Source: Ancylobacter vacuolatus (GTDB taxonomy: Bacteria > Pseudomonadota > Alphaproteobacteria > Rhizobiales > Xanthobacteraceae). From it: a DNA stretch of 64,000 nt. The stretch is from the NCBI RefSeq assembly GCF_030813595.1, contig NZ_JAUSUH010000002.1, positions 310,001 to 374,000 of the forward strand, written 5' to 3'. The stretch's first letter is position 1. Each line of letters starts with the position of its first letter. Made by a program: the position numbers and the translations under genes. The notes under the pieces are model-generated. The model made no database searches. It was not told the origin of the DNA and worked only from the letters and a program-made list of their open reading frames with translations. This document shows positions 20,151 to 53,971 of the stretch, piece after piece.

Positions 20151-23100
20151 TCAGCTGAATTGGGTCAGCAGGTCGAGGTCCTCCTGGCTGAGATCGAGCG
20201 CCGCGAAGTCGCTCGGCGAATAGCGGCGCTCCGAGCGCGCCGCAACCGAGCGGCAGGCTTCGGCCTCGTCGCGGATGGCGGCGAGCAGCCGCTCGATGGT
20301 CGCCGCGTTATGGCCGGCGCCGAATTCACAGCGAATGACCAGGGCGCCGCCCTCCTGCCAGCAATTGAAGGCGAGGCGGTGCGGACGCGCCGCCTGCGCC
20401 GCTCGCTCCCGGCCCGCTCCCAGCCGCACCAGAGCGAGGCCGGCATGGCCGAAGCGGCTGATGTCGCCGAGGAAGTTGAACGACACAAGCGGCCGCGCCC
20501 CGGCGAGCGGCACGGCGGCGGCGCGCAGCAGGCCATAGCCCATGGAGCGCCCCGCCGCGGCCCGCGCCAGATCCTTCACCGCCAGCAGCCAGTCCGGCAG
20601 GTCGCTCGCCTCTCCCGGCAGTGCCAGGGGATAGCGGGTGGTAAACCAGCCAAGGGTGCGCGACAGGTCGATGGCGGCATCGCCCGGCTCGCGGCCATGG
20701 CCTTCCAGCTCGACCTGTAGCGCTCCCCCCGTCCACTGCACCAGCGGGCGGGCGATGAGGGCGAGCGCGCTCTCCTGCGGCTGGTGGCCGAAGCGCTCGG
20801 TGAGATCGGCCAGCAGCGGCTGGCACAACGCCGCGTCGAGCCGGAGATCGCGGGTCTGCGCGGCGCCCTCAACGTCCGGCGCGTTTGGATGATCGAGCGG
20901 CACGGCGGTGGGCGCCTGCGTCACGCCTTGCCAATAGGGGCGATCGACCTCGAAGGCCGCCCCCATCCCCGCCTGGTGGCGGCACCACCAAGACCAGGAG
21001 GTCGGCGGCGCCAGGACCGGCAGCGGCGGGTCGGACAGCGCCTTGGCGAGATCATCAGCGAGGATCGCCCAGGACACCATGTCGAACACGAGGTGATGCA
21101 CGGCGAGGACGAGACGCAGCGCGGCGCCGGCCTCGATCATGCCGGCGGCGAAGGGCCGGCCCGCCATCGGGTCGAGCATCGCCACCAGACGGTCGGCCAT
21201 GCGGTCCTCGATCGGCGACACATCCTTCCCGACCGCCACCTGCTGGCGCAGCAGCGCCGGCAGGACGGCGGCGTCCTCCACCTGCTGCAGCGGCGGCACC
21301 CCATCCTGCAGGCGCACGCGCAGCCCATCATGGCGCTGCACCGCGCCCGCCAACGCCGCATCCACCGCCTCGCCCTTGGTGCCGGGCGGCAGGTCGAACA
21401 CGGCGGTGAGCGCCCAGTGCCGGCGGTCGGGCATGGCGAGCCCCATGAACCAGTTCTGGATCGGCGTCAGCGGCACCGGCTCGGACACGGGCCCGCGCTC
21501 TTCGGTTGGGTGCGTGGACACGGGTTGCATCACGCCGGCCAGAGCGCGCGGCGTCGGCGCGGTGAAGATCTGCGCCGGGGAGAGCAGCCACCCCGCCGCC
21601 CGGGCCTTGCCGGCCAGCTGGATCGCCAGGATCGAATCGCCGCCCAGCGCGAAGAAGTCATCATCCGGGCGGATGACGGTGGCACCGAGCCCGGCGAAAA
21701 GCTCCCGCCACAGCGCCAGAACGGTGGCGAGCGGGTCCCGCGCGCCAGCAGCGGCGGAGGGAGCCGGCACAGCGGAGGCGACGCTCTCGACGGGCGGGGG
21801 CGCGGCGAACAGCGCCCGCAGCGCCGGCCGGTCCACCTTGCCATTGGCGGTGAGCGGCAGCGCCTCAAGGATGATGAGGCGCGACAGGCGCTGCGCCTCC
21901 GGCAGCGCCTCGCTGAGCAGGGCACCGAGGCTCTGCGCGCGCTCCCCCGGCGCCACCGCCGCGCCGACAAGGCGCACCGTGCCATCCTCCTCGCGCAGGG
22001 CCAGCACGGCGGCATCGCGCACCCCAGGACAGGCGCGCAGCTGCGCCGCCACCCCATTGGGATCGACCCGGTGGCCACGGACCTTCACCATATCGTCCTT
22101 GCGGCCGAGAAAGCGGATCAGCCCGTCTTCATCCCGGCTGCCAAGATCGCCGGTGAGATAGGCCCGCGTCCCGTCGGCCAGCCGGATGAAGCCGGAAGCG
22201 GCCTCCGCGGCTGGCTCGTCTTCGCTCTGGCCGACATAGCCCAGTGCTACGCCGGCCCCGCTCACCCGGATCTCGCCAGTTTCGCCGGCCGCCAGCACCG
22301 CACCGTGCTCGTCGACAATGTCGATCCGCGCGCCATCGAGCGCCTGGCCCACCGGCACGCGGTCCGTCGCCTGCGTGCCGGCGGCGAGCGCCGGCGTCAC
22401 CTCCACCATGGTGCAGCCAATGGTGGTCTCGGTCGGGCCATAATGATTAAACACGCGCAGCTCCGGCCGCAGCGCCGTCAGCCTCTCGACGAGGCCAAAG
22501 GTCAGCACGTCGCCGCCTGAGATCAGCGCCCGCCGGGGCAGCAGCGCGGCCGCCTCGGGATGCGCCATCAGCGCCGCGAGATGGCTGGGAACGATCTTCA
22601 GCACGTCGGCGGGGTGGCGCGCCATCCAGTCGATGAAGGCGGCGGGGTCGCGGGCGGTCGCCGCGTCCAGCACGTTGAGCGTGCCGCCCGAAGCCACCGC
22701 GCCGACGACGCTGGTATAGCCGAGATCGGCGGCAAACGAGGTGGCGATGGCAAACACCTGCGGGCCGGGGAGCGCCAGCCGGTGCAGCAGCGCCTGGGCA
22801 TAGGCGTCGAGCCCGCCGCAGGACACCCTCACCCCCTTCGGCCGCCCGGTGGAGCCTGAGGTGAAGAGGATATAGGCGAGGTCGCCGGCCGTGCAGGTCG
22901 CCCGCGGGGGCGGCGCTATCTTTGCCGGATGACGGCTCCAGCCGAGCACGGGCACCGGGGCCGGCTCGCTCTCAAGGGCGCCATCCGCCACCAGCACCTT
23001 GGCACCGCTCTCGGCGAGAAGCGTGGCGCGGTAATCGGCGGGATAATCCGGATCGAGCGGGACGAAGGCCGCACCCAGATGGCTCGCCGCCGCCATCGCC

Positions 23101-26100
23101 ACCAGCGGACCGGCGCCGCGTGTCAGGCAGAAGGCGACGCGATCGCCCCGCCGCACGCCCTGCACCGCCAGCCGCATGGCGAGCGCGCCGCTGGCGCGCG
23201 CGAGTTCCGCCCAGCTGAGCGTGCCCTCGCGGTCGATCACCGCCGGCGCCTCCGGCTGCAGCGCCGCCCAGTGCGCGACATGATCGGCGAGGCTGGTCGG
23301 CCGCGGCGCGACGGCCGGGGCCGCCTCGGTCGGGGTTGCCTCCGTCGGGGCTGCCTCGGTCGGGGCCGTGCCGATCGCTGCCAGCACGGCGCGGTAGCGG
23401 GCAACCCAGCTCTCCACCCGGGCGGCATCGAACAGATCGGTGTTGAAATTGGCCTCGACGACGAGACCCTCCGCGCTGGCTTCAAGATTCCAGTTCAAGT
23501 CCCAGCGCACACTGCCATGGGCGTTGGCGCGGATGGCCGGCGCCAGCCCGGCAAAGGCAGCGAGCGGCTCCACCTTGTCCAGATTGAACGACACGCTCGC
23601 CAGCGGCGGACGGGAGGGGTCCCGCCGCACACCGCTGGCCTTGACGATGGCGGAGAGCGGATAGGCGGGGAAGGCCATCGCCTGCACCATGGCGGCGCGG
23701 GTGACGCCGAGAGCATCGCCCCCCAGACCGGCAAGCCGCACCGGCACGGTGGAGATGCAATAGCCGGTCAGTCCCGGCTCGCCCACCAGCGGCTGGCCGG
23801 CCGCGAAGATCGCCACCACCAGGTCGTCCTGCCCGGAAAGCTCCGCCAGCAGCTGGCCATGGGCGGCGAGGCACAGGGTGAAAAGCGAGCAGTCGAGCGT
23901 GCGCGCCCGCGCCGACAGTTCAGTGGCGACGTCCCGCGGCAGCAGCGCCCGCACGGTGCCGCCCGCATAGGTCTGCAGCGGCGGGCGCGGCCGGTCGGTG
24001 GGAAGATCCAGCACCGGCGGCGGGCTGGCGAACACGCCCTGCCAATACGCGGCGGCGTCCGGATCGGCGGCCGCCTCGCGGGCAAAACTGGCGAAGCGCT
24101 CATAGGCGACGGGGGCCGGCAGCATCGCCTCGGTCCCCGCCAGACGGGCGGAATAGAGCAGGCCCAGCTCATTGGCCAGCACCTGCAGCGACCAGCCATC
24201 GGTGACGATATGCGGCTGGATCAGCGCCAGCGCCGTCTCCGCCCCGCAGCGCAGCACGCCGACCCGCAGTTGCCCGGCGCGTGCCAGATCGAACGGCTGC
24301 GCTGCTGCCTGCCGCACCCAGGTGGCTATGGCGACGTCGTCGAGAAGATCGGCCTCTTCCAGCGCCACCACGGCCTGCGGCTCGATCACCGCCTCGCCGC
24401 CGCCGTCCGAAAACCGCATGCGCAGGCTGTCATGGCGCGCCACGAGATCGGCCAGCGCCGCGTTCAGCGCCGCCGCATCTATCAGACCGGGCAGGCGCAG
24501 CACCAGCGACTGGTTATAGGCCGCCGCGCTCTCCGGGCTGAAGGCGGCGAGCGTCCACAGCGCCTGCTGCCCGGGGGCGGTGGCGATGGTCCGGGGCATG
24601 GCGGGGGCATCGAACACGGCGGGGAGGGACGCCCCGCCCATCAGGCCGACCGTTGCGAGGGCGCGGGCACTCTCCCGCACCGCCCGTGCCACCGTGTCGA
24701 GGTCGTCTTCGCTATGGGCGGTGGAGAGGAAGCAGGTGCGCCCCTCCCAGACATAGACGCCGCGCGAGATCAGCTGGCTGTAGAACAGATCGCTCGCGCC
24801 GGAAAAGCGCAGCACGGAGGAGAAGTGCTCCACCCGCAGCGGGCTGCCATCTTCCTCCAGCGCGGCGTTCAGCGTGGCGCACAGCGCCTGCGTGCGGGCG
24901 TTCAGCTGCTCCTGCAGCGTCGGGCCGGACGCTTCCAGATGACCGAGCATGGCGCTGGCCGCCGCCATGGCGAGCGGGTTCTTGTTGAAGGTGCCAGCGA
25001 AGAAGGTCCGCTCCGCCTTGGGGCCGCCGGCGCCCTCCAGCGGCCAGACGCCGCCGTCGATGCCGTCGAGAAAGGCACTGCGGCCGGAGACGACGCCAAT
25101 GGGCAGGCCGCCGCCGACGATCTTGCCATAGGTAACGAGATCGGCCCGCACCCCCGCCCAGGCCTGCGCCCCGCCGGCGGCGACGCGGAAGCCGAGCAGC
25201 ACCTCGTCGAAGATCAGCGCCGCGCCGGCGCGGGCGGTGAAGCCGCGCAGCCACTGCAGGAAATCGCGCGGCTGCAGGCCCGGACGCCGGCTCTGCACCG
25301 GCTCGACGATAACAGCCGCCAGCCGGTCGCCCAACGCTTCCAGTGCGCTCTGGCTGCCTTCGGGGTCGGCATAGTCGAGCACCACCACATCGGCCAGCAT
25401 GCCGGGCGGGGTGCCTCTGGCGAGCGGCAGGCTGGCGCCGTCCGTGCCGGAGCGCGCCAGCGTGCCGTCGAAATGGCCGTGATAGGAGCCGGCGAACATC
25501 GCCACCAGCGGGCGGCCGGTGGCGTGGCGGGCGAGGCGTAGCGCGGTCATCACCGCTTCGGTGCCGGTGTTGCAGAACAGCACCCGCTCATTGCCGGTGA
25601 GCCGGGCGATCGCCGCCGCCGCCGCGCCGGCCTTTTCCGCCTGTGGGCCGAGAAAAAGCCCCTGCTCGGCGATCTGGCGCTGGATCGCCTCCACCACCAT
25701 GGGCGGGTTGTGGCCGAGCAGCTGGACGCCGAAGCCCATGGTGAGGTCGACATAATCGTTGCCGTCGGCATCGACGATATGACTGCCCTGCCCCTTCACA
25801 CCGATGATCGGGTAGAGCAGCGACTTGGTTTCGGGCCGGAACCCGGCCACCGCCCGGCTGTCGGCCAGCACGGCGCCATAGGCTTCGCGCTGGTGGCGGG
25901 AGGCGCCGTGCGTGGCACCGTAGCGGGCGGCGAAATCGGTGATGAAGCTGGCCGCCTGCGGGCTCAGCGTTTCGGCCGGCGCGACGGGAGGAGCGTCCGG
26001 CGGGGGTAGGGCTGGGCTGGACACATGGGCCTCCGTCGCCGCACCCATGGCGGCAGAAGTCGGGATGGCGGAAGAGAGCGGCGTCGAAAGCGCGGGCTCG

Positions 26101-29100
26101 CAGGATGAGGCGGGCGCAGAGGCCTTGGCCTCCACCTCGCGCAGCACCCGCTCCAGCAGCGCCCGTGGCGTGGTGAGGGTGGTGAACAGCTCGCGGCGCG
26201 GGATCGCCACCTTCCACCGCCGCTCCAGCGTCGAGAGCGCCTCGGTGAGGGCGAGCGAATCCACCCCCAGCGTGAAGAAGCCGGCGTCGCCGGAAAGTGC
26301 CGCCTCGCTCAGCTGCAGGCTGCGGCGCAGGCTGGCGGCGATGCCGGCGCGAACGTCCTCGCGGCTCGGCGCCGGGAGGGCCGGCACGACCGCCGCCGAC
26401 GGGGGCGCGGGCGCGTGCAGGGCGAGCGGCGCCACCGGCCGCCGGGAGGGAGCGTCGACCCAATGCCGTTCACCGGCGAAAGGATAGGGCGGCAGGTGCG
26501 CGCGCGGCGCGCCGCTCTCTGGCCATTGCACGTCGATGCCGGCGACGAACAGGCGGCAGAGCGCCAGCGCCAGGGTTTCGCCCGCCGCGCGGTTGCGACG
26601 GAGAGTCGGGATAAAGCGGGCGTCCCGGCCCTCGAAGCCGGGAGCGCGCTGGGCGAAGCCGACCAGCGTCGCGGCCGGGCCGATCTCCACCACCACCTGC
26701 ACGCCCGCGCCGGCCATCGTCTCGAGGCAGGCGCCGAATCGCACCGGCTGGCGGATCTGCCGCCCCCAATAGGCGGGATCGGTCAGATCGGCGGAGAGAT
26801 CGCCTGTCACATTGGAAACCACGGGCAGGCGCGGGCTCGCGAGAGCCGCGCCGCGCACCTTCTCCGCGAATGGTGCCACCACGTCGTCCATGAGGTGGGA
26901 ATGGAAGGCGTGGCTGGTGGCGATCCGCTGGCTGCGGATGCCGTGCGCATCGAGCGCGGCGAGCAGCGCGGCGACCGCCTCGCTCTCCCCCGACACCACC
27001 ACCTCCTCCGGTGCGTTCAGCGCGGCGATATCGAGCCGCGCGGCGTAAGGCTCCAGCAGCGGGGCGATGCGCTCCTGCGTCGCGAACACCGCCGCCATCT
27101 CGCCGCCCTGCGGCAGCGCGCCCATCAGCGCGCCGCGCGCCGCCACCAGGTCGAGCGCCGCCTCGAAAGGCAGCAGGCCGGCGACGCAGGCGGCCGACCA
27201 TTCGCCGAGGCTGTGGCCAGCGACGATGTCGGGCGTGACGCCGAACACCTTGAGCCGCTCGGCCAGCGCGACCTCCAGCACGAACAGCGCGGGCTGCACC
27301 TCGGCGGTCTCGGTCAGCGGGCCGCGTGCCGGATCGAACATGCGCGCGGCGAAATCGAGGCCGAGCTGAGCCCCGGCGGCGTCGACCCGGGCGCGAAAGG
27401 CCGGGTCGGCCTCATAAAGCTCCGCCGCCATGCCCGGCCACTGGCTGCCCTGGCCGGAAAACAGGAAGGCGATCTTCGGCCGTTCAGAGATGGCGAAGCC
27501 AGTCGCGCCGGGGGTCGGCGCTTCGCCCTCGGCGACCGCGCGCAGGCCCGCCAGCGCTTCCTCATAGCTGCGCGCCAGCAGGGCAGCGCGGTGGGAAAAA
27601 CGCCCGCGTCCGGCGTTCAGCGCCGCCGCCATGCCGGCCAGCGAGACCTGCGGTTCGGCGGCGAGATGATCGGCCAGCGCGGTGGCCATACGGCGCAGGC
27701 CGTCGGCATCGGGAGCGGAGAAGGCGAGGACGGTCGGCAGCGGCGCGTCGATTGCCGCCGGCGCGACCAGCGGGGCCTGTTCGAGAATGAGATGGGCATT
27801 GGTGCCGGAAAAGCCGAAGCTGCTCACGCCGGCGCGGCGCGTGTCGCAGGCCGGCCAGTCCATCGCCTGTTCGACGACGCGCACGGGGAGTTCGTCCCAG
27901 GCAATGCGCGGATTGGCTTGCGCCTGGTGCAGCGTGGCCGGCAACCGCCCGGCTTCCAGCGCCAGCACCATCTTGATGAGGCCGGCAATGCCGGCGGCGG
28001 CCTCCAGATGGCCGATATTGGTCTTGGCCGAGCCCAGCAGCAGCGGCGCGGCGCGGCCCTCGCCATAGGCGGCGGCAAGCGCCTGCACCTCGATCGGATC
28101 GCCGAGCGGCGTGCCGGTGCCGTGGCATTCCACCGCCTGCACGTCCGCCGCTGATAGGCGCGCATCGGCCAATGCGGCAGCGATCACCGCCCGCTGGGCG
28201 GCGCCATTGGGGGCGGTGAGCGCGCTGGAGTGGCCGTCATGATTGATGGCGGAGCCGCGAATGATGCCGCGGATGGCGTCGCCATCGCACAGGGCGTCGG
28301 AGAGGCGCTTCAGCACCACCAGCCCGCCGCCCTCGCCGCGGACATAGCCATCCGCGCCCGCGTCGAAGGTGCGGCAGGCATGGCCGGGCCCCAGCATGCC
28401 GGCGGCAGCGAGCGCAGCGGTTACGTCGGCGTCCAGTGTCAGATTGACCCCGCCCGCCAGGGCAAGGTCGCATTCGTCGCCGCGCAGCGCGCGGCAGGCG
28501 GCATGCACGGCGACCAGCGAGGAGGAGCAGGCGGTGTCGATCACCAGAGCCGGGCCGGTGACATCGAGCCAATGGCTGATGCGACCGGCGGCGATCGAGC
28601 CGGCATTGCCCAGAATGGCAGCGGGGGAGAGCGTGTCGGTCGCCTGGAACCGGGCCTCGTATTCATTGGCGCCGAGGCCGAGAAACACGCCGGTCGCGCG
28701 CGGCCGCCGGGCGGCATCGGCATAGCCGGCATCTTCCAGCGCCTGAAAGGCCAGCATCAGCGCCAGGCGGTGCTGCGGGTCCATGGCCTCGGCCTCGATC
28801 GGCCGGAGGCCGAAGAAGCCGGGGTCGAAGCGCTCCACGCCATCGATATAGCCGCCGGGCGGCAATCCCTCGCGCTCCGGCCGGTCGGCCGGGGCGGGGC
28901 GGACGGCATCGCGACCCTGGAACAACAGCGCGCCATAGGCGGTGGCGCTGGCGGCCTCGGCAAAACGGGCGGCAAGGCCGATGATCGCCACCGGCTGGCG
29001 TGCCCGCGCCGTCTCGGCGCGCAGCGCGTCGATGCGCCCTTCCAGCGCCAGCATCAGATCGGTGATCTGTTCGGGGTGCAGCCGGCTCAGCCGCGTCAGC

Positions 29101-40100: not shown

Positions 40101-40321
40101 GGCATGACCATTTCTTCGCCCTCGCCGGCACGTCGCTCCTTGCCATGCAGATGATCGCGCGGGTGCGCCGCGAACTGGCGCCGGCGGCAACCCTCGCCGA
40201 CCTGTTCGAGGCGCCGCAGCTGGCGGCGCTGGCCGCGCGACTGGCGGCGGCGGCGAACCGTCCGGAGCCCGGCCCCGCCCTCGCCGGGCGCCAGCGCGCG
40301 CGGGTGGAGCTGCCCTCGTGA
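37160..40321 (+). CDS. NRPS module (C-A-PCP)
   Basis: 1,053 residues from the GTG at 37160 (AAAAGG upstream; the condensation family start IEDIYGLTDLQRSM follows at once). ATG 37079 and the first in-frame start at 37025 are alternatives. C domain: HHLAVDGWSLG, canonical; as it accepts a chain from an E-ending protein, a DCL type is expected. A domain: FTSGSTGRPKG, NEYGPTEATVW, YRTGDRV, TANGKVD. The pocket residues read D-G-T-C-K-A-E-V-W-K, seven of ten shared with the published Tyr code DGTITAEVAK, so the substrate is uncertain. PCP: FFALAGTSLLAM with the phosphopantetheine Ser. There is no terminal domain; the chain passes to the next protein, whose gene starts 28 bases later. Confidence 0.94.
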   Translation: MARGPIEDIYGLTDLQRSMLVRCVSYPDQPLFMGQWWAALAGPLDAESFAAAWAAVVQRHSALRSGFHWELKGVPAQVVVAAPAFEVERLDWSARDNWRAALDALLEEDRAHPFDLRRPPLMRVRLVTLAPEGPAPRHLLVWTRHHLAVDGWSLGEILDEVLTLYRGGTVPPALSFRRYVEWWQGRDVDAARAHWGAALAGHSPDSAVRSSTVHAPHIGEACHILAPALADRLGALARSERLTLSTLVEGAWALVLARTEGTDDLVMGCVETVRPPELLGDRSSHMVGPQIGVLPSRVRRDARPLRHWLAELQNARAAGREAGPLGLDTMRDLLGLPSDALPLRSLIAVQTYPLALAAAFRAAGLEILASGDVTLPDMPLNLMVEIGEAFELRLMVDQQHVALTQARQLLDMLATALERLPAHLDAPANTLDVMPDAMRRDIEAALTGQPLPAPAGTALDLILAQMRARPEAPALIATGGVWTYGDLGARAAAIAARLAGAGVRPGARVAVMLEHGPEAVAAILGILCAGASYVPLDPEAPAERRAMILASAGVAALVTRRALADAFPALATLAVEDITPEPADLDALTRPAAVDEAYVIFTSGSTGRPKGVSVGHDNLRTHVAASAAENADLPIGRFLLTFPLFFDGSVTGLFCTLCEGGTLVLPDATQARDVDRLLALIRDNAVTHVCLTPSLWALLLEAAGPQGLPGLRLAKVAAEPCPPALVAAHAARAPNAVLCNEYGPTEATVWVCVERCRPETTGASVAIGHPIPGTRLHVLDAEGRPCPFGTIGELVVSGPAVARAYIGAEPGVALRTPLGGTGATPAVVAYRTGDRVSLGFDGRLFFHGRRDRQVKIAGYRVEPGEVEAALQALPGILDVAVVVDETDGRPARLVAHIGAGPATPDDAALRQLLAARLPAYMIPHTFLRHSRLPRTANGKVDLAALPPAPFTETVDAAPEGTFETALAALWSEALGGVRIGRHDHFFALAGTSLLAMQMIARVRRELAPAATLADLFEAPQLAALAARLAAAANRPEPGPALAGRQRARVELPS

Positions 40322-46300: not shown

Positions 46301-47312
46301 CTCGCTCGGCCTGGCGACAGTGGCCGCCCGCCTGTCCGAGCGCCTTCGCCGTCCGGTGCCGGTCACGGCGCTGATCGAGCATCGCAGCGCCGCCGCGCTG
46401 GCCCGCGCCCTGGCGCGTGCAGGCACCTCGGAACCGGTATGGGACGCGGTGGTGCCGCTCACCGGCGGGAACGGCGAACCCTTCGTCTGCGTCCATCCCA
46501 TCGCCGGCGATGTCAGCGCATTCCTCGATCTCGCCCGCGCCTTCCCGCCCCAGACCGCCTTCTGGGCGGTTCAGGCGCCAGGGCTGGAACCGGGACAGCA
46601 GCCGCCCGCAAGCGTCGCGGCGCTGGCGGAGGCAAACCTTGCCGCGCTGGCCCGCCGGGGAGTGCCGGCCCCGCGCTTGCTCGGCGGCTATTCCTTCGGC
46701 GGCATCGTCGCCTATGAAATGGCCTGCCAGCTGAGCGCGCGCGGCACCCCGCCCGAGCGGCTCGTCATCATCGACACCCCCGCCCCGCTCGGCAGCCACT
46801 CCGTCCTGCCACCCGACCCGGAACGCGCGCAGGCGCACTGGCTGCTGCGGATGGCCGATGTGCGCGCCCGCCACCATGGCACCCCGCTCGATCTCGGCAT
46901 GGACGAGCTGCTGCCGCTCGACGAGGAGGCCCGCTTCGCCCTCGCCTGGGCGCGGATGCGCGACGCCGGGCTGATCGCCGCGGAATCCGATGTCGCCTGG
47001 CTTGGCCGCGCCTATCGCGCCAGCCGCGCTCTCTATGAGGCATTTCTCGCCTATGCCCCCGCTGTGGGGGCGCCGCGCGACCTGCCGCTGTGCCTGGTGC
47101 GGGCCGCCAGCCTACACCAGGGCGACCTAAGCGAGGCCGACCGGGCGATCCTCGCAACGCCCGACATGGGCTGGTCGCGCCTCAATGATCGACTCCTCGG
47201 CGTGGAGACGGTTGCCGGCGACCATGTGTCGATGCTCTCAGATGAGGGGGCCGTGCAGACAGCGGCGGCCATCGCTGCTTTTCTCGACCTGCCTTGCCCG
47301 GCGCGCAGGTAG
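40350..47312 (+). CDS. Terminal NRPS (C-A-PCP-degenerate E-C-PCP-TE)
   Basis: 2,320 residues. C1 (HHIICDG near 140); A (FTSGSTGVPKG near 617, NGYGPTENTTF, NANGKID); PCP (VGGDSILTI near 1012); an epimerisation-like domain at about 1075-1480 whose motif reads LHEAVADD instead of HHxxxDG, so the catalytic His is Glu; C2 (HHMLADGW near 1629); a second PCP (GLTSLGLA near 1983); TE (GGYSFGG near 2113, GDHVSML near 2290). The A pocket reads D-A-L-W-V-G-G-T-F-K, eight of ten with the gramicidin S Val code. There is no A domain between C2 and the last PCP, so the final building block must come in trans, or C2 acts differently. TE releases or cyclises the product. Confidence 0.95.
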   Translation: MASGYIAGLSFGQRQIRLAELLRPGRTLFAMPILVRLSGRVDEAALRGALAALVRRHDSLRAAFPLVDGALVQAVADEIALPLTVEATELPFASPAFAARMAARAQALVDEPFDLSAGPLARFLLLRAGDDGAALVAVFHHIICDGASLDLFLDELKAGYDEALGAGGAPHPALPLQFPDVADWEQECFGAGGPVLEAAMATWRAALQGAPARLDLPYDRRPGSLHAAPSAQAELEVPGDVAARLTALARQEGTSEFSLYLALMFAVLRRWSGLDDLVVTIPAARRDRPELAEVIGLLVDTLPIRAVLTDDTRFPALVAQLRDALRGAMAHRELPFERIVEASGVERRGEAAPFLQVLFGTAEPASAPLTACDGTMFERLPEQLEQEAKADLSVVYANGEDGLRLWCRYDASLFEAQTIEAVLNGFGCLAQALAAQPDQAVLEVPLLAPADGAVLVARFNATSLAYEREASAIDLFFREAERHPHAPAIEENGVALSYGALAARVRRLATVLAAHGLGQGDVAILALPVSAALIEAQLAVLTLGAAHAPVDPTFPAEQRDQRAHIAGARHAVVLDPAQATSGCATLDWTQLRAEADTAAPHPGCVVSAQSPAYVMFTSGSTGVPKGVCVPHRAIVRLARSRRLAAPGLRAAVYSNPAFDASTLEIWLPLLNGGTLLPVDRTVVMDPRALRLFLAEARVSLLWVTAGLFQQIAALDPAAFAGPRVVVTGGDVVNPVAARAVLAAGRDQGLVLLNGYGPTENTTFSTLFDIAGLAEDELSIPIGTPISNSTAYVLDPTGRPLPPGLVGEIWLGGDGLALFYAGDAALTAERFRPDPFAGAPEARMYRTGDLGRWRADGNIVFLGRADKQVKVRGFRIELGEIEAMLALHPAVGGAAVLAPRRPSGERDLLAYVAPKPGLTLTQGELRAHLEARLPRQMLPHAFMVLDRLPLNANGKIDARALPPMELVDTPAEPPLEPRTPEERILARIWGDLLGSGAGSRPLVGIQDNFFHVGGDSILTIRLVARAFEAGLDIELKDVFDQPTIEGLAAIALRRKRAVQAQGHGARHGAELIAAACDPRNPCRFVSVTVAATVSAVDLGYAIQRLAERHDALRLIRVEDASGRSLAVSDFLPTVPVRFVDVAAGALDDLDSWIADHDARLARGIDLAAGVTIAATLVKQEAPSGAGSTVVLALHEAVADDRALLLLATELEAALAAGPDSARQPAPSLSFSQWLAWLASHATSPHVREAAIACEAAQAEAPPDGFAATAATFAAAQRLLDAGTSRVLLEDLPGRLGVSLLDAVLVALGEALGGTPAIELVDGRRTLPDGAPEAAGLVANLDTLLPLQACAPGNGACRALDLRLREAKSARQRAEPLGLAFSAVRSAFRLAPPTIGLALLPAPAQDPAIRLHPHAPNVPASVRASLTVRVTGGRLALCWSQAAPAPAAQARLEAIAQALGAIAQWAPQQAGPLLTPGDFPLAGLDAATLDEVAGSAGDIEDIYPLSPMQEAMLLHSLSRQGSAVNFEQSCMRFTGTLDTAALRKAWTLVFERHPVLRTVFRWRGLERPLQLVGRNARPPVELETWPGFSAERLDQRLAQDRAEGFDLEAGPLARLILIRVSASEAYLIASFHHMLADGWCLAQLEREARAAYEAFRRGISPALPPPARFRDFIAWTTTIERAGLRAAFVPLLAGAPAQPALLAAGTGAAAYVTVRRQLSVAQSKALSDLSRRRGLTIAALAHLAWGLWTGARRGVDDTVFCTTVSGRPPQVPGVEQMVGLFINNLPVRLRFAPGSAVLALAQEMQRQIAALQSQAQLSLMEVAEAAGLGDRASCLFDTLLVVENMPAGSDAWTGAGGLRVESVHNALKSAYSLTGVVVPGERVGLSLVLPDTDGTAEALGEAMITEFAALFAALPGAIEQTVAMVPLPVAAPVARAVERSAPAAAEVLAPASVHANATEAAALDVLSAILGRQLGLTEDVLDAGLTSLGLATVAARLSERLRRPVPVTALIEHRSAAALARALARAGTSEPVWDAVVPLTGGNGEPFVCVHPIAGDVSAFLDLARAFPPQTAFWAVQAPGLEPGQQPPASVAALAEANLAALARRGVPAPRLLGGYSFGGIVAYEMACQLSARGTPPERLVIIDTPAPLGSHSVLPPDPERAQAHWLLRMADVRARHHGTPLDLGMDELLPLDEEARFALAWARMRDAGLIAAESDVAWLGRAYRASRALYEAFLAYAPAVGAPRDLPLCLVRAASLHQGDLSEADRAILATPDMGWSRLNDRLLGVETVAGDHVSMLSDEGAVQTAAAIAAFLDLPCPARR

Positions 47313-47321: not shown

Positions 47322-48983
47322 ATGGGCGCCCCCCCGATTCGCACGCGACAGACACAGCAACATGGTCCCCGCCATGCGCGGCCGGCTGCCGCCGTGGCGC
47401 TGGCGCGGCGGCTCTGCGCCGGTGCCACCCCGCTGCTGCTGGCGGGCTGCATGGTGGGGCCGAATTTCCAGGCCCCGCCAGCGCCTGCCGTGAGCGGCTA
47501 CACCGTCGAGGCCCGGCTGCGGCCGGCCATGGCAACCGATGTCGTTGGCGGCGCACAGCAGAATTTCGTGGAAGCACTCGATGTGGGCGGGCAATGGTGG
47601 CGGGAGTTCAACTCGCCGCAGATCAACGCCTTCGTCGAGGAGGCCGTGCGCAACCACCCGGATGTGCGGGCGGCGCAATATGCCCTGCGCGCGGCGCGGG
47701 AGACGACGCTGCAGGTGCGCGGCCAGTTCGTGCCGCAGGTGAGTGGCAACGTCACGGCTACGCGCGAACAGATCACCGCCGCTTCCGGCGGGACGACGGG
47801 CAGTCCGACGCTCTACAATCTCTACGAGACGACGGTGAACGTCTCCTACACGCTCGATGTGTTTGGCGGCATTCGCCGGCAGGTGGAATCCGCCGAGGCG
47901 CAGGCGCAGTACCAGCGGTTCGAGATGGAGGCGACCTATCTCTCCCTCACCGCCAATGTCGTCACCTCGGCCATCACCGATGCCTCGCTGCGCGCGCAGA
48001 TCGCCGCCACCCAGGCGATCGTCACGGCGGAAACCGACCAGCTGCGCCGCGTCCAGCGCCAGTTCGAGGTGGGGGCGGTTTCGCAGGCCGACGTGCTGGC
48101 GCAGCAGACGACTCTGGCGCAGACCCAGGCGACCCTGCCACCGCTGCAGAAGCAGCTGGCCCAGGGCCGCAACCAACTCATGGCCTATCTCGGCCGCCTG
48201 CCCAGCGAGGATCGCGGCGAGAGCGTGGATCTGAGAAGCCTGCGCCTGCCGCGCAAGCTGCCGGTGAGCCTGCCCTCGCAGCTCGTGCGCCAGCGCCCCG
48301 ACATCCGCCTGGCCGAGGCGACGCTGCACCAGGCGGCGGCGACGGTGGGCGTCAACACGGCGAACCTGCTGCCGCAGTTCACCCTCACCCCCTCGGTGAG
48401 TTCCCAGGCGCTGACCGTCGGCCAGCTGTTCACGCCGCAGGGCCTCGCCTGGACCGCCGCCGCCAGCATCGCGCAGACGCTGATGGACGGCGCCCAGCTC
48501 TACCGCACCAAGGAAGCCAGCGTCGCCACCTTCGAACAGGACTATGCGCTCTACCAGAGCACGGTGCTCACTGCCTTCCAGAATGTGGCGGACGCGCTGC
48601 GGGCCGTGCAGTACGACGCCGGCACCCTGCGTGCGCAGGCGCTGGCGGAACAATCGGCGCTGGACAGCCTAAAGATGGCGCAGGAACAGTTCAAGGTCGG
48701 CGCCATCGGCTACGCCATCGTCATCGAGGCGCAGCAGGCCTATCAGAACGCCGTCATCGCCCGCATCCAGGCCCAGGCCACGCGCTACAGCGATACGGTG
48801 GCGCTGTTCCAGGCGCTGGGCGGTGGGTGGTGGAACCGTGTCGACGAAACCAGCGATGCCGCCATTCGCAATGGCGGCTATTTCGAAGGACCGGACGGGC
48901 CCGCCCTCGCCGCGACCCGGCCCGGCCTGCCCGACCTGCCGCCCACGCCCGAGCCCGGCACTGCCAAGGAGAAATCCCGGTGA
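47322..48983 (+). CDS. Outer-membrane efflux lipoprotein (NodT/OprM-type OMF)
   Basis: 553 residues with a lipoprotein signal ending LLLAGCMVGPNFQAPPAP and two outer-membrane-efflux repeats (EEAVRNHPDVRAAQYALRAAR; QLVRQRPDIRLAEATLHQAAATVGV). It forms the TolC-like duct of the RND system encoded next. It begins 9 bases after the terminal NRPS stop and overlaps the adaptor gene by 4 bp, so the exporter is co-transcribed with the synthetase genes. Confidence 0.94.
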   Translation: MGAPPIRTRQTQQHGPRHARPAAAVALARRLCAGATPLLLAGCMVGPNFQAPPAPAVSGYTVEARLRPAMATDVVGGAQQNFVEALDVGGQWWREFNSPQINAFVEEAVRNHPDVRAAQYALRAARETTLQVRGQFVPQVSGNVTATREQITAASGGTTGSPTLYNLYETTVNVSYTLDVFGGIRRQVESAEAQAQYQRFEMEATYLSLTANVVTSAITDASLRAQIAATQAIVTAETDQLRRVQRQFEVGAVSQADVLAQQTTLAQTQATLPPLQKQLAQGRNQLMAYLGRLPSEDRGESVDLRSLRLPRKLPVSLPSQLVRQRPDIRLAEATLHQAAATVGVNTANLLPQFTLTPSVSSQALTVGQLFTPQGLAWTAAASIAQTLMDGAQLYRTKEASVATFEQDYALYQSTVLTAFQNVADALRAVQYDAGTLRAQALAEQSALDSLKMAQEQFKVGAIGYAIVIEAQQAYQNAVIARIQAQATRYSDTVALFQALGGGWWNRVDETSDAAIRNGGYFEGPDGPALAATRPGLPDLPPTPEPGTAKEKSR

Positions 48984-50092
48984 GCAAACCGCGTGTCATC
49001 TTGTGGCTGGCCGTCGCTGCCCTTGCCGGCGGGGCCTTCTATGTCGTGAAGGAGCGCATGGCCCCGGCAGGCGCCCCGGCCCATGGCGGCGCCCCGGCCC
49101 AGACCGTGGCGGCGCAGCCGGCGCAGATGCAGACATGGCAGCCGACCATGGAACTGGTGGGTGATCTGCGGGCCTCGGAGGGGGCCGATCTCTCGCTCCA
49201 GGTCTCCGGCATCGTGGAATCGCTCGCCTTCGAGTCCGGTCAGACGGTGCAGGCCGGCACGCCGCTGCTGCAGCTGGTCGCCGAAGACCAGGTCGCCAAG
49301 CTCGCCTCGCTCAAGGCCACCGCCGAACTCAACGCCATCATCCTGAAGCGCGACACCGAGCAGCTCAAGATCAAGGCGGTGAGCCAAGCCACGGTCGATA
49401 CCGACGAGGCCAATCTGAAAAACTCGCAGGCGCTGGTGAAGCAGCAGGAGGCACTGGTCTCCTACTACGCGCTCAAGGCGCCCTTCACCGGACGGCTGGG
49501 CATCCGCAATGTCGATCTCGGCCAGTATCTGAGCGCCGGCACCGCCATCGTCACCCTGCAGGCGCTCGATCCGCTCTTCGCCGATTTCTTCGTGCCGCAG
49601 AAGTTCTTCGGGCAGTTGAAGGTGGGCGAGCCGGTGAAGGTGACCGTGGATGCGTATCCCGGCCAGTCCTTTCCCGGCACGGTGAGCGCCATCAATGCGA
49701 AGGTCGAAAGCGGCAGCCGCAACGTCAAGGTGCGGGCGACGCTGAAGAACCCGGACGGCAAGCTGGTGCCGGGCATGTTCGCCAAGGTCGCGCTCGACGT
49801 CGGCGCTGCCGAGCGTTTCGTCACCCTGCCGCAGACCGCCATTGTCGCCAATCCCTATGGCTCGACCGTGTTCGTGCTGGAGAAGACCCCCGACGGCAAG
49901 GGGCTGGTGGCGCGCGAGACCTTCGTCAAGCTGGGACAGGCGCGCGGCGACTTCATCGCTGTCACCTCCGGGCTGAGCGAGGGCGAGACGGTGGTGGTGG
50001 CCGGCCAGATCAAGCTGCGCAACGGCACTCCCGCCGTGGTCGACAACAGCCACATTCCCAAGGTCGAGCTTGATCCGAACGTGTCGGACTGA
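48980..50092 (+). CDS. RND efflux periplasmic adaptor (membrane fusion protein)
   Basis: 370 residues from the GTG at 48980, which overlaps the OMF stop and follows AAGGAGAAA. A single N-terminal hydrophobic anchor (VILWLAVAALAGGAFYVV) is followed by biotinyl-lipoyl-like halves (VSGIVESLAFESGQTVQAGTPLLQL; LKAPFTGRLGIRNVDLGQYLSAG), a short coiled hairpin and beta-barrel/MP domains (GTVSAINAKVESGSRNVKVRATL). It links the inner-membrane pump to the outer-membrane duct. A much longer frame exists upstream but is out of family. Confidence 0.94.
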   Translation: MSKPRVILWLAVAALAGGAFYVVKERMAPAGAPAHGGAPAQTVAAQPAQMQTWQPTMELVGDLRASEGADLSLQVSGIVESLAFESGQTVQAGTPLLQLVAEDQVAKLASLKATAELNAIILKRDTEQLKIKAVSQATVDTDEANLKNSQALVKQQEALVSYYALKAPFTGRLGIRNVDLGQYLSAGTAIVTLQALDPLFADFFVPQKFFGQLKVGEPVKVTVDAYPGQSFPGTVSAINAKVESGSRNVKVRATLKNPDGKLVPGMFAKVALDVGAAERFVTLPQTAIVANPYGSTVFVLEKTPDGKGLVARETFVKLGQARGDFIAVTSGLSEGETVVVAGQIKLRNGTPAVVDNSHIPKVELDPNVSD

Positions 50093-50103
50093 CAGGAGCG
50101 GCC

Positions 50104-53100
50104 ATGCCCATCACCGACATCTTCGTCCGCCGCCCGGTGCTCTCGCTGGTGGTCAGCGCGCTGATCCTGGTGATCGGCGTGCGCGCCATGTTCGCGCTGC
50201 CGATCCTGCAATATCCGGCTATGCAGAACGGCGTGGTGACGGTGACCACCACCTATGCCGGCGCCGATTCCGACATCATCGCCGGCTTCATCACCTCGCC
50301 GCTGGAGAACGTGATCGCCCAGGCCAACGGCATCGACTACATGACCTCGTCCAGCCAGACCGGGGTCAGCTCGATCACCGTCAACCTGCGGCTGAACTAC
50401 AATACCGGCGACGCCCTCACCGAGATCAGCACCAAGGTGAGCTCGGTGCTGAACCAGCTGCCGAACGGCACCCAGCAGCCGATCCTCGCACTGAAAACCG
50501 GCTCCACCATCGATGCGATGTACATCGCTTTCTCCAGCACGGTGCTGGCCGAGAACGAGGTGACGGACTATGTCGCCCGCGTGGTGCAGCCCAAGCTGCA
50601 GGCGGTGGCCGGCGTGCAGGTGGCGGAAATCCTCGGCGGCAAGAACTTCGCCCTGCGCGCCTGGCTCGACCCGGACAAGCTGGCCTCGCTCGGCCTCACC
50701 GCCACCGATGTGGCGACCGCGCTGGAGACCAACGACTACATCGCCGGCGTCGGCACCACCAAGGGCAGGCTGATCCAGGTGAAGCTCTCCGCCGCCACCA
50801 ATCTGCATTCGGTGGAGGAGTTCCGCGAGCTCATCATCAAGAATGTCGATGGCGCGGTGATCCGCCTGAAGGACGTGGCGAATGTCACGCTGGGCAGCGA
50901 CGACTATGATTCGCGCACCAGTTTCGACGGCAAGTCCGCCGTCTATATCGGCATCCAGGTGGCGCCCTCCGCCAATCTGCTGAACGTCGTCGCCGGCGTG
51001 CGGGACATGCTGCCGACCATCTTCGCCGACCTGCCGACCGGGCTGTCGGGCACGGTGCTCTACGACGCCACCAACTTCGTCAACACCTCGATCCACGAAG
51101 TGGTCAGCTCGCTGTTCGAGGCGGCGCTGATCGTCACCCTCGTGGTCTTCGTGTTCCTCGGCTCCTGGCGCTCGGTGTTCATTCCCATCGTCGCCATTCC
51201 CCTCTCGCTGATCGGCAGCTTCGCGCTGATGCTGGCCTTCGGCTTCTCCATCAACCTGCTCACCCTGCTCGCTTTGGTGCTTGCGATCGGCCTGGTGGTC
51301 GACGATGCCATCATCGTGGTGGAAGGGGTGAACCGCCACATGGAGCAGGGCCTCAAGCCGGTGGACGCCGCCATCGCCGCGGCGCGGGAGCTGGCCGGGC
51401 CGATCATCGCCATGACCGCGGTGCTGATCGCGGTCTATGTGCCGGTGGGCTTCCAGGGCGGCCTCACCGGCTCGCTGTTCACCGAATTCGCCTTCACCCT
51501 GGTGGCGGCGGTGATGGTGTCGGCGGTCATCGCGCTCACCCTGTCGCCGATGAGCTGCGCCTATCTGCTGGCGCCCTACGACCCCTCCGCCCGCACGGTG
51601 GAGGCGCGCATGGTCCGCACCATCGACGGCGCCATGAAGGCCGTCACCCGGGTCTACCGCGCCGCGCTCTCCGCCTCGCTGCACGTGCTGCCGCTCACCA
51701 TTCTCTTCGGCGCGCTGGTGCTGTCGAGCATCTACTGGCTCTATTCCAACTCCACCTCGCAGCTGGCGCCGCCGGAGGATGAGGGGGTGATCCTGACCAT
51801 GATGAGCGCGGCACCGAACGCCACGCTGGAGCAGCGCGAATTCTACGTGCAGCAGATCTACGCCATTCTCGACAAGCGGCCGGAGACCGACCTCGTCTTC
51901 CAGATCGACATGCCCGGGCAGGTCATCGGCGGCTGGGTGCTCAAGCCGTGGGACGAGCGCAGCGTCTCGGCACTGGCGCTCGCCCCGCTGATCCAGCAGG
52001 AGTTCAACAAGATCGCCGGCGTGCGCGTCGCCGCCTTCCAGCTGCCGCCCCTGCCCGGCAGCAGCGGCCTGCCGATCCAGTTCGTGCTGAAGTCCAACGA
52101 CACCTATGAGCGGCTCTACGAGGCCTCGCAGAACTTCCTCGCCGAGGCGATGAAGAGCGGCAAGTTCATCTTTCTCGACAGCGACATGAAGATCGACCAG
52201 CCGCACGCCGCCATCCATTTCGACCGCGACAAGGTCTCGTCGCTGGGTCTGAACATGAGCGATGTCGGCGCCGCCATGGCCACCATGCTGGGCGGCAACT
52301 ACGCCAATTATTTCGATCTCGGCGGCAAGTCCTACAAGGTCATCCCGCAGGTGAAGCAGCAGCACCGGCTCAACACCGACCAGTTGCTGAACTATTACAT
52401 CAAAGCCTCGGACGGCACCTCGGTCCCGCTGTCCACCATCGCCTGGATCGAGATGAAGACCGTCCCGCAGTCGCTCAACCATTTCCAGCAGCTCAATTCC
52501 TCGACGATCTCCGGCATCGCCATGCCCGGCGTGTCCGATGGCGAGGCGCTGGCGGAGCTGGAGGCCATCGCCGCCCGCTCGCTGCCCTCGGGCTACAGCT
52601 ACGATTTCGCCGGTTCCTCGCGCCAGTTGGAGCAGGAATCGAACGGCTTCGTCACCACTTTCGCGCTGGCGCTGGTCATCATCTTCCTGGTGCTGGCGGC
52701 GCTGTTCAACAGCTTCCGCGATCCACTCGTCATCCTGGTCTCGGTGCCGATGTCGCTGGCCGGCGCGCTGGTCTTCATCTGGCTCGGCATTGGCGGCGCC
52801 ACTATCAACATCTACACCCAGGTGGGCCTGGTCACGCTCATGGGGCTGGTGAGCAAGCACGGCATCCTGATGGTGGAAGTGGCCAACACGCTGCGCAAGC
52901 AGGGGCTCGCCAAGCGCGAGGCGGTCATCGAGGCGGCGACCATCCGCCTGCGGCCGATCCTGATGACCACGGCGGCGATGGTGCTGGGCGTGACCCCCCT
53001 CATCATCGCCACCGGGGCGGGCGCCAATTCGCGCTACAATATGGGTCTGGTCATCGCCTCCGGCCTGTCCATCGGCACGCTGTTCACCCTGTTCGTGGTG

Positions 53101-53178
53101 CCCGCCTTCTACCTGCTGCTGAGCCATCGCGACGAGGCCGTGCCGGCGACGACGGTGCCCCCGGCGGCGACGGCGTGA
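50104..53178 (+). CDS. RND multidrug/lipopeptide efflux transporter
   Basis: 1,024 residues of the HAE1/AcrB family with two 6-TM halves and large periplasmic loops. The start ITDIFVRRPVLSLVVSALILVIGV and TM4 GLVVDDAIIVVEGVNRH (proton-relay Asp pair) are diagnostic, as are the late segments LVLAALFNSFRDPLVI and VGLVTLMGLVSKHGILMVE. The closest subgroup by these motifs is MexK/MuxB/MdtB-like. It is coupled to the adaptor (11 bases apart) and, within this cluster, probably exports the lipopeptide or confers self-protection. Confidence 0.95.
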   Translation: MPITDIFVRRPVLSLVVSALILVIGVRAMFALPILQYPAMQNGVVTVTTTYAGADSDIIAGFITSPLENVIAQANGIDYMTSSSQTGVSSITVNLRLNYNTGDALTEISTKVSSVLNQLPNGTQQPILALKTGSTIDAMYIAFSSTVLAENEVTDYVARVVQPKLQAVAGVQVAEILGGKNFALRAWLDPDKLASLGLTATDVATALETNDYIAGVGTTKGRLIQVKLSAATNLHSVEEFRELIIKNVDGAVIRLKDVANVTLGSDDYDSRTSFDGKSAVYIGIQVAPSANLLNVVAGVRDMLPTIFADLPTGLSGTVLYDATNFVNTSIHEVVSSLFEAALIVTLVVFVFLGSWRSVFIPIVAIPLSLIGSFALMLAFGFSINLLTLLALVLAIGLVVDDAIIVVEGVNRHMEQGLKPVDAAIAAARELAGPIIAMTAVLIAVYVPVGFQGGLTGSLFTEFAFTLVAAVMVSAVIALTLSPMSCAYLLAPYDPSARTVEARMVRTIDGAMKAVTRVYRAALSASLHVLPLTILFGALVLSSIYWLYSNSTSQLAPPEDEGVILTMMSAAPNATLEQREFYVQQIYAILDKRPETDLVFQIDMPGQVIGGWVLKPWDERSVSALALAPLIQQEFNKIAGVRVAAFQLPPLPGSSGLPIQFVLKSNDTYERLYEASQNFLAEAMKSGKFIFLDSDMKIDQPHAAIHFDRDKVSSLGLNMSDVGAAMATMLGGNYANYFDLGGKSYKVIPQVKQQHRLNTDQLLNYYIKASDGTSVPLSTIAWIEMKTVPQSLNHFQQLNSSTISGIAMPGVSDGEALAELEAIAARSLPSGYSYDFAGSSRQLEQESNGFVTTFALALVIIFLVLAALFNSFRDPLVILVSVPMSLAGALVFIWLGIGGATINIYTQVGLVTLMGLVSKHGILMVEVANTLRKQGLAKREAVIEAATIRLRPILMTTAAMVLGVTPLIIATGAGANSRYNMGLVIASGLSIGTLFTLFVVPAFYLLLSHRDEAVPATTVPPAATA

Positions 53179-53179: not shown

Positions 53180-53971
53180 ATGACCGGCCCCGGCGCCGCC
53201 TCTCCGGTCTTCGCGCGCGAGGCCGCCTTCGCCCTCCAGGCCGGCGGCCGCACTCTCGCCTGCGCCATGTCGCTGGTGTCGGCACCGCTGGAGGCGCTGG
53301 AGGCGGCGGCGGCGAACTGGCTCGCCCCCGAGGAGGAGGCCCTGCTGACCGAGCGGCTCGCCCCCGCCCGGCGCCAGTCGCTCCTCGCCGGGCGATGGGC
53401 GGCGAAGAACGCCCTCGGCCTGCTGGCGCCCGGCATTGCCGCCCGCGACATCTGCATCCTGCCGGGCCTGTTCGAGCAGCCCGTCGCCACGCTGACGGGC
53501 CGGGCCAATCTGCAGGTCACGCTGGCCCATGCCGGCGGGGCGGCGCTTGCCGTGGCGCACCCCGAATCCTGCCCGATGGGGGTGGACCTCGAGCGCGCCG
53601 CGCCTGAGCATCTCGGTGCGCTGAGCGAGCAGACCACGGCTCGGGAGCGGGAACGGGCGCACGCCGCCCTGGCCTTTGACGAACCCCAGCGGCTGCTGCT
53701 GCTGTGGTGCCTGAAGGAAGCGCTCTCCAAGGCGCTGCGCTGCGGGCTGACCGTGCCGTTTGGCCTGTTGGAAGTGACGAGCCTCGCGCCCCTGCCCGGC
53801 GGGGTTCGGGCCCGTTTCGAGAATTTCGCCCAGTATGAGGGCATCGCCTTCGCCGCCGCCCCCTTCGCCCTGGCGGTGGTGCACCCGCACATGGCGCAAT
53901 GGGAGGGCGGCGAGGGTGGCGCCTCGCCTCTGCGGCTGCACGACTGGCTGGCCTCGCTCGGCCAGAGATAG
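53180..53971 (+). CDS. 4'-phosphopantetheinyl transferase (Sfp type)
   Basis: 263 residues. Sfp-family motifs: MGVDLERAAP (metal-binding Asp-Glu) and LLLWCLKEALSKAL (WxxKEAxxK). The N-terminal half has the usual weakly conserved fold plus RRQSLLAGRWAAKNALG. It transfers phosphopantetheine from CoA to the serine of carrier domains, six of which are encoded in the cluster (two ACPs and four PCPs). It starts one base after the RND gene stop and closes the plus-strand operon, marking the cluster's right border. Confidence 0.93.
   Translation: MTGPGAASPVFAREAAFALQAGGRTLACAMSLVSAPLEALEAAAANWLAPEEEALLTERLAPARRQSLLAGRWAAKNALGLLAPGIAARDICILPGLFEQPVATLTGRANLQVTLAHAGGAALAVAHPESCPMGVDLERAAPEHLGALSEQTTARERERAHAALAFDEPQRLLLLWCLKEALSKALRCGLTVPFGLLEVTSLAPLPGGVRARFENFAQYEGIAFAAAPFALAVVHPHMAQWEGGEGGASPLRLHDWLASLGQR

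What the first reader, a model, noticed from the sequence alone, without database searches (positions are those of the whole stretch)
20151..53971. Iturin-like beta-amino lipopeptide cluster in an alphaproteobacterium
FAAL-ACP, then KS-AT-ACP-aminotransferase-C-A-PCP-E, then C-A-PCP, then C-A-PCP-E*-C-PCP-TE, with PhyH, ABM-like, thioesterase, PPTase, ABC and RND genes. The first steps match mycosubtilin/iturin logic, but FAAL-ACP is a separate protein and the genes are split over two strands. A short acyl-beta-amino peptide from such a host appears new to me.
Basis: partly seen in the sequence, partly recalled or inferred. Interest (0 to 1): 0.85.

Follow-up and report, generated by a model that had tools for sequence, protein, structure and literature searches.

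The report
Orphan beta-amino lipopeptide assembly line
A soil and water bacterium carries a conserved set of twelve genes that most likely builds and exports a short fat-tailed peptide by the same opening chemistry as the iturin antifungals, with an unusual dead domain kept near the end of the assembly line.

Summary
Twelve genes at 20151-53971, in two divergent runs, encode FAAL-ACP, KS-AT-ACP-aminotransferase-C-A-PCP-E, C-A-PCP, C-A-PCP-E*-C-PCP-TE, PhyH, an ABM-like protein, thioesterase, ABC and RND exporters and a PPTase. The host is an Ancylobacter. The block is syntenic in 6 of 6 relatives fetched (12 of 12 genes in five, 11 of 12 in one), and related synthetases occur in Alcaligenaceae. 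The aminotransferase's closest solved structures are from mycosubtilin synthetase MycA. Hand-read codes suggest D-Asp, a His- or Tyr-like residue, then Val. "Starts like iturin" is supported; "is an iturin" is not. Neither a separate FAAL (puwainaphycins) nor a beta-amino tail in Alphaproteobacteria (fabrubactins, recalled) is unprecedented. The odd part is the tail: E* has lost its catalytic motifs in 31 of 31 relatives and groups with epimerization domains, yet shows dN/dS 0.13-0.24, similar to most neighbouring domains. It is followed by a C domain and an A-less PCP-TE. A non-catalytic role, such as recruiting the PhyH oxygenase, is the boldest reading. The product is unknown; MIBiG/antiSMASH could not be run.

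The parts
20151..29132 (-). orfA: KS-AT-ACP-AMT-C-A(Asp-like)-PCP-E hybrid PKS-NRPS, 2993 aa (alternative TTG start 29147)
   Evidence: Pfam; NCBIfam; motifs; 62-93% identical full-length relatives
24849..25808 (-). class III beta-aminotransferase domain (MycA-like)
   Evidence: Pfam; closest PDB 6kfm/6kfr/6kfu MycA, E 4.5e-123
21837..23276 (-). A1, hand-read code DLTKIGHIGK: Asp-like
   Evidence: sequence; family alignment; DLTKVGHVGK is Asp/Asn in PMC12283262 (passage)
20154..21497 (-). E1, intact epimerization domain: predicts D-Asp
   Evidence: HHxxxD, EGHGRE and GWFT motifs intact
29119..31284 (-). FAAL-ACP didomain, 721 aa
   Evidence: Pfam (as ORF 29119-31779); closest PDB chains 7r7f/7r7g/7r7e (named 'Polyketide synthase') and 3kxw, then FadD-type FAALs
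31281..34058 (-). ABC exporter with C-terminal cNMP-binding domain
   Evidence: Pfam; NCBIfam
34068..34937 (-). stand-alone (type II) thioesterase
   Evidence: Pfam (as ORF 34068-35087)
35102..35968 (+). PhyH: Fe(II)/2-oxoglutarate dioxygenase; H118, D120, H225 invariant and R237 near-invariant in a 49-row alignment
   Evidence: Pfam; alignment; MysH nearest in PDB by sequence and fold
36545..36931 (+). ABM-like small protein, 128 aa; conserved partner of unknown role
   Evidence: Pfam (80-aa start, just over cut-off); weak HmuQ match, below its cut-off; 86-98% identical in 6 of 6 relatives
37166..40321 (+). NRPS2: C(DCL-like)-A-PCP; A2 code DGTLKAEVWK, His- or Tyr-like, unresolved; start could be 37256
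   Evidence: Pfam; tree; code conservation; His code DSALIAEVWK from PMC12283262 (passage)
40350..47312 (+). NRPS3: C-A(Val-like)-PCP-E*-C(DCL motif)-PCP-TE, 2320 aa
   Evidence: Pfam; 31-protein alignment
41775..43211 (+). A3, hand-read code DALWVGGTFK: Val-like
   Evidence: DALWIGGTFK in PMC12283262 (passages)
43533..44819 (+). E*: catalytically dead epimerization-type domain (HEAVADD for HHxxxDG, VDGRR for EGHGR)
   Evidence: motifs lost in 31 of 31; tree sister to E domains; dN/dS 0.13-0.24
44832..46139 (+). C4, condensation domain with DCL-type N-terminal motif, HHMLADG intact
46212..46415 (+). PCP4 of the terminal module, which has no A domain
   Evidence: Pfam (2 PP-binding stretches); Ser conserved in 30 of 30 with the region
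46482..47279 (+). terminal thioesterase
   Evidence: Pfam; GYSFGG in 30 of 30 with the region
47394..53178 (+). OEP (NodT type), HlyD adaptor, RND permease: tripartite exporter
   Evidence: Pfam; NCBIfam
53180..53971 (+). 4'-phosphopantetheinyl transferase
   Evidence: Pfam

Best explanation
This is a complete assembly line for a short beta-amino lipopeptide, one member of a conserved proteobacterial family distinct from the iturins. FAAL adenylates a fatty acid and loads its own ACP. KS-AT-ACP adds one malonate and, having no reductive domains, leaves a beta-keto thioester. The aminotransferase turns it into a beta-amino acyl chain. The synthetases then add D-Asp (A1 plus intact E), an unresolved His- or Tyr-like residue, and Val. 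The chain passes the dead E*, and C4 with the A-less PCP4 adds one more residue, most simply a second Val loaded by A3. TE releases the product, probably by ring closure on the beta-amine. PhyH hydroxylates one residue or the acyl chain. ABC and RND pumps export it. Shown by sequence: gene and domain order, motifs, conservation, loss of E* catalytic residues and purifying selection on E*. Inferred: residue identities, loading of PCP4, cyclization, site of hydroxylation, export role and activity.
For: Domains. MycA is the nearest solved aminotransferase by a wide margin and FAALs the nearest solved ligases. KS, AT, ACP, AMT, A1, PCP1 and E1 motifs are kept in nearly all family members that cover them (exception under evidence against). 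Strict synteny in 6 of 6 relatives fetched. AMT tree (midpoint-rooted): 48 family sequences form one clade, support 0.999, of 175 in the tree. A3 code Val-like throughout the 31 NRPS3-type proteins, with changes at one position in some. C2 of NRPS2, which follows E1, has 3 DCL-labelled and 3 unlabelled domains as its six nearest neighbours. PhyH iron residues intact. In 15 of 70 PhyH rows above the identity gap the longest-contig length equals that of an orfA or NRPS3 row, against 0 of 47 below it.
Against: No product is known. Pocket codes were read by hand against recalled GrsA positions, and A2 fits His (7 of 10) and Tyr (8 of 10, recalled code) about equally. C1 has PHxxxDG instead of HHxxxDG (41 of 42 of P0001-P0042), which is unusual. 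One close relative, P0012 (Ancylobacter sp. IITR112), departs at several motifs and lacks the aligned ACP stretch: a damaged copy or a poor sequence. E* is dead, yet the next C domain carries the DCL-type motif, so the stereochemistry after Val is uncertain. How PCP4 is loaded is not shown.
Confidence: 0.72

Rival explanations
1. The PhyH/ABM pair alpha-hydroxylates the beta-amino acyl chain, giving a microginin- or puwainaphycin-like 3-amino-2-hydroxy-acyl peptide.
For: PhyH and ABM-like genes are kept in 6 of 6 relatives. The puwainaphycin line places an oxygenase next to the aminotransferase (PMC4219810 passages). The AMT family's next neighbours in the tree include cyanobacterial sequences.
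Against: Puwainaphycin uses an in-line monooxygenase beside the aminotransferase; none is present in orfA. PhyH is an unrelated, stand-alone enzyme at the head of the other operon.
Confidence: 0.18
2. A lipopeptide metallophore related in logic to fabrubactins, using hydroxylated Asp and possibly His as iron ligands.
For: Asp-like A1, possible His-like A2, and a linked Fe/2OG oxygenase. FAAL-primed siderophores are listed for Pseudomonadota (Table 2 rows, PMC11837247).
Against: None of the 12 genes is a TonB-dependent receptor or another siderophore-uptake gene. The oxygenase is PhyH/MysH-like rather than the Asp beta-hydroxylase type (recalled as TauD-like). A second NRPS, possibly for a siderophore, lies elsewhere in the genome.
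Confidence: 0.1
3. E* is only a decaying remnant with no role.
For: It has lost both catalytic motifs and C4 can be pictured working without it.
Against: The domain is alignable through both motif regions in 31 of 31 relatives, from Alpha- to Betaproteobacteria. dN/dS 0.13-0.24 over five comparisons, close to the TE domain (0.18-0.27) and C3 (0.21-0.32).
Confidence: 0.25
4. A true iturin-family antifungal cluster acquired from Bacillus.
For: MycA-like aminotransferase.
Against: Different protein layout, different residues, and host-like GC and GC3. The listed relatives of the AMT outside the family are cyanobacterial and other environmental sequences (MycA itself was not in the tree).
Confidence: 0.02

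Closest known systems
Mycosubtilin / iturin / bacillomycin synthetases (MycA, ItuA, BamA)
   Same: FAAL, ACP, KS, AT, ACP, aminotransferase, C, A order (order recalled); AMT domain is the closest solved structure
   Different: FAAL-ACP is a separate protein; shorter line with three A domains; D-Asp first; E* and A-less terminal module; PhyH, ABC and RND genes; gram-negative host
Puwainaphycin and other cyanobacterial beta-amino lipopeptide clusters
   Same: FAAL encoded apart from the PKS-AMT-NRPS protein; PKS module, AMT and one NRPS module in one protein (PMC4219810, passages)
   Different: In-line monooxygenase and an extra methylating PKS there; longer peptides (recalled)
Fabrubactins (Agrobacterium fabrum)
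   Same: Alphaproteobacterial, FAAL-primed (Table 2 row of PMC11837247); beta-amino acyl tail (recalled)
   Different: Siderophore with Dmaq and alpha-hydroxycarboxylate groups (PMC12971057, passages); no homology test was made against its genes
X domain of glycopeptide antibiotic NRPSs
   Same: Non-catalytic C/E-fold domain after a PCP; HRxxxDD motif (PMC11546977, passage), which 3 of 31 E* domains show exactly and 22 show as HExxxDD
   Different: X domains are closest to LCL domains (PMC8949500, passage); E* is sister to E domains and is followed by C-PCP-TE, not by TE
Syringomycin SyrE terminal C-T-TE
   Same: Terminal module without an A domain
   Different: Syringomycin has a stand-alone A-T protein SyrB1 (PMC8949500, passage); none lies in this cluster

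Membership tests
Beta-amino lipopeptide synthetases (FAAL + PKS + class III AMT) | FAAL with carrier protein | tested here: met
Beta-amino lipopeptide synthetases (FAAL + PKS + class III AMT) | Non-reducing KS-AT-ACP followed by AMT in one protein | tested here: met
Beta-amino lipopeptide synthetases (FAAL + PKS + class III AMT) | Product with a beta-amino fatty acyl group | not testable with these tools
   needs chemistry
Iturin family | Single MycA-type protein carrying FAAL, PKS, AMT and NRPS | tested here: not met
   FAAL-ACP is a separate gene, 29119-31284; single-ORF layout of MycA from PMC4219810 passage
Iturin family | Heptapeptide, seven NRPS modules with Asn/Tyr/Asn opening (recalled) | tested here: not met
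   three A domains, Asp-like first
X domain (glycopeptide NRPS) | HHxxxDG replaced by HRxxxDD | tested here: inconclusive
   window HExxxDD; HRxxxDD exactly in 3 of 31 relatives
X domain (glycopeptide NRPS) | LCL-type ancestry | tested here: not met
   E* sister to E domains, support 1.0, in a 151-domain sample without an X domain; structural neighbours led by E domains, but model pLDDT 49
X domain (glycopeptide NRPS) | Binds tailoring oxygenase | not testable with these tools
   no complex prediction available
Epimerization domain (active) | HHxxxDG and EGHGR catalytic motifs | tested here: not met
   lost in E* of 31 of 31
PhyH Fe/2OG dioxygenase | HxD...H iron triad and Arg for 2OG | tested here: met
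   H118, D120, H225 invariant in 49 of 49, candidate Arg R237 near-invariant
Metallophore cluster | TonB receptor or other siderophore transport beside the NRPS | tested here: not met
   none among the 12 genes

The most novel reading that the evidence does not exclude
E* is an epimerization domain turned non-catalytic docking platform, an E-derived counterpart of the glycopeptide X domain that arose independently. It recruits the linked stand-alone PhyH dioxygenase (and perhaps the ABM protein) to oxidise the peptide on PCP3, before C4 and the A-less terminal module, whose PCP4 is loaded by A3, finish a small cyclic beta-amino lipopeptide.
Probability: 0.25. Interest if true: 0.7.

Novelty: new variant of a known kind. 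Interest (0 to 1): 0.45.

Why it matters
It defines an orphan lipopeptide family shared by Alpha- and Betaproteobacteria with culturable, named carriers (Ancylobacter aquaticus DSM 101, A. polymorphus DSM 2457), so the product can be sought directly. The conserved dead E* plus A-less ending offers a test of whether NRPS pseudo-domains other than the glycopeptide X domain act as recruitment platforms.
Full report
OBSERVATION. The window is contig C2 310001-374000 of a 5.02-Mb genome. The genes form two divergent runs separated by the gap 34938-35101: leftward stand-alone thioesterase, ABC exporter, FAAL-ACP, orfA; rightward PhyH, ABM-like, NRPS2, NRPS3, OEP, HlyD, RND, PPTase. Motifs read from the translations: KS, AT (malonyl-type HAFH), ACP, AMT lysine, A1, PCP1 and E1 are intact; C1 reads PHIVTDG; in NRPS3 the domain after PCP3 reads HEAVADD, while the next C reads HHMLADG, followed by a PCP with no A domain and a TE with GYSFGG.

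HOST AND DISTRIBUTION. Nearest proteins belong to Ancylobacter sp. FA202, A. polymorphus, A. aquaticus, then Rhodopseudomonas, Xanthobacter agilis, Rhodoplanes roseus, Segnochrobactrum spirostomi, and Alcaligenaceae such as Pusillimonas and Candidimonas (names). With the AMT domain as query, 12 of 198 family genomes match at E 1e-60, of which 6 (own included) at 83% identity or more and 6 at 44-51%; 4 of the 12 same-genus genomes listed carry it. In the order sample 13 of 397 match at E 1e-100, the close ones being G000, G022 and G280; in the phylum sample 19 of 398 match, close ones G000 and G022 only. So the family is rare and patchy in these samples, whereas beta-aminotransferase PKS-NRPS proteins in general are not.

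BOUNDARIES. In six relatives the 12 genes keep order and orientation: 12 of 12 in G022, G103, G186, G046, G192 and 11 of 12 in G280 (PPTase not found). The left flank (sigma F to DoxX) is shared by the three Ancylobacter carriers and by G084, which has no AMT match; in G046, G192 and G280, where about 4-6 kb left of the cluster was fetched, it is not found. On the right only about 0.4-2.8 kb was fetched in the relatives; 183 bp in G186 matched the window's right flank, so that edge is less well tested. GC3 of the cluster genes (0.71-0.93, ABM lowest) is like that of the ten neighbours measured (0.79-0.92).

CHEMISTRY. The AMT domain hits MycA structures at 414 bits, the next family (glutamate-1-semialdehyde aminomutase) at 203; the FAAL hits natural-product and mycobacterial FAALs. 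Hand-read codes, using recalled GrsA positions: A1 DLTKIGHIGK, A2 DGTLKAEVWK, A3 DALWVGGTFK. A signature survey (PMC12283262, passages) gives DLTKVGHVGK for Asp/Asn, DALWIGGTFK among the Val codes, and DSALIAEVWK for His; the Tyr code DGTLTAEVAK is recalled. A1 and A3 are thus Asp- and Val-like; A2 is open. The A2 code is kept in 7 of 7 sequences compared apart from changes at 278 and 299. E1 intact predicts D-Asp; the six nearest tree neighbours of the following C2 are three DCL-labelled and three unlabelled domains.

THE ODD TAIL. In 31 of 31 aligned NRPS3-type proteins the second His of HHxxxDG is replaced (Glu 22, Asp 1, Arg 6, Pro 2) and EGHGR is absent. C4 keeps HHxxxDG in 30 of 31, PCP4 its Ser in 30 of 30 and TE its GYSFGG in 30 of 30 that cover the region. 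In a tree of 151 C-type domains, a sample of those retrieved and labelled by motif, the 11 E* sequences (plus a second copy of one, from the HMM search) form a clade (0.99) sister to the 31 E domains (1.0); C4 carries the DCL-type motif, and its six nearest neighbours are its own orthologues. Pairwise dN/dS of E* against G186, G103, G022, G046, G192 is 0.13, 0.24, 0.23, 0.24, 0.24; for TE 0.21, 0.18, 0.23, 0.21, 0.27; for C3 0.21-0.32; for C4 0.14-0.24; A3 0.17-0.27; the short PCPs vary more (PCP3 0-0.15, PCP4 0.03-0.46). So E* is non-catalytic but constrained. The glycopeptide X domain is the known precedent for a non-catalytic C/E-fold domain: HRxxxDD motif (PMC11546977, passage), recruits P450s, described as exclusive to glycopeptide lines and closest to LCL domains (PMC8949500, passages). 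E* shares the motif type but, as far as tested, not the ancestry.

PHYH. The linked dioxygenase has an intact iron triad, a good model (pLDDT 89.4) and MysH as nearest solved relative by sequence and fold. Of 502 homologues the best 120 were listed; a gap separates 72 rows at 47% identity or more from 48 at 43% or less (apart from one short fragment, P0316, 52%). Dropping three rows without contig data (P0301, P0311, P0316), 15 of 70 in the first set share the exact longest-contig length with an orfA or NRPS3 row, 0 of 47 in the second. 14 of 25 first-set rows on contigs of 30 kb or more found no such partner, which may reflect list limits but was not resolved. PhyH acting through E* is an inference; no test of contact was possible.

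TERMINAL MODULE. The cluster holds no stand-alone A domain. In G022, G192 and G280 all 6 C-type hits lie in the cluster. The simplest reading is that A3 loads both PCP3 and PCP4; loading in trans, as in syringomycin (PMC8949500, passage), is not excluded.

COMPARISON. What it works like: the first half of mycosubtilin/iturin or puwainaphycin synthesis. What it is: a separate proteobacterial family. The AMT tree puts 48 family sequences in one clade (0.999), with further environmental sequences and then a group that includes cyanobacterial ones as next neighbours; MycA itself was not in that tree. The Pseudomonadota rows seen of the FAAL review table (PMC11837247, passages; section 19 read) name no product that I can assign to this cluster, though fabrubactin, occidiofungin and other Pseudomonadota compounds are FAAL-primed. 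Searches showed no description of this cluster in the rows listed.

VERDICT. Interest 0.45.

Noticed in passing
16240-20138: NrsF, ECF sigma factor, DUF2282, MbnB/TglH/ChrH-type enzyme, DUF2063 and DoxX in a row: looks like a bufferin/gig-type RiPP operon (label recalled); syntenic in the three Ancylobacter carriers, and from the sigma factor to DoxX in G084.
   Followed up: partly
54959-55426: DUF2840 gene just right of the cluster, a family I recall as linked to conjugative elements; possible trace of a mobile element.
   Followed up: no
55889-58187: Cytochrome P450 with an adjacent 2Fe-2S/NAD reductase; the fetched stretches of relatives end too near the cluster to say whether it travels with it.
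   Followed up: no
L124:3109-7005 (G000:C2): A second NRPS (C and A domains, about 1300 aa) near an AMP-ligase ORF about 320 kb away, perhaps a siderophore synthetase.
   Followed up: partly
family f110 of G714: 103 of 233 genomes carry AMT-like matches at 42-53% identity, mostly in long open frames of 2200-3000 aa: beta-amino PKS-NRPS lines look very common in that unnamed family.
   Followed up: no
31281-34058: ABC exporter with a C-terminal cyclic-nucleotide-binding domain and a long N-terminal extension, conserved in 6 of 6 relatives.
   Followed up: no
P0012 (Ancylobacter sp. IITR112): orfA homologue with altered AT and C1 motifs and no aligned ACP stretch: a damaged copy or a poor sequence.
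   Followed up: no
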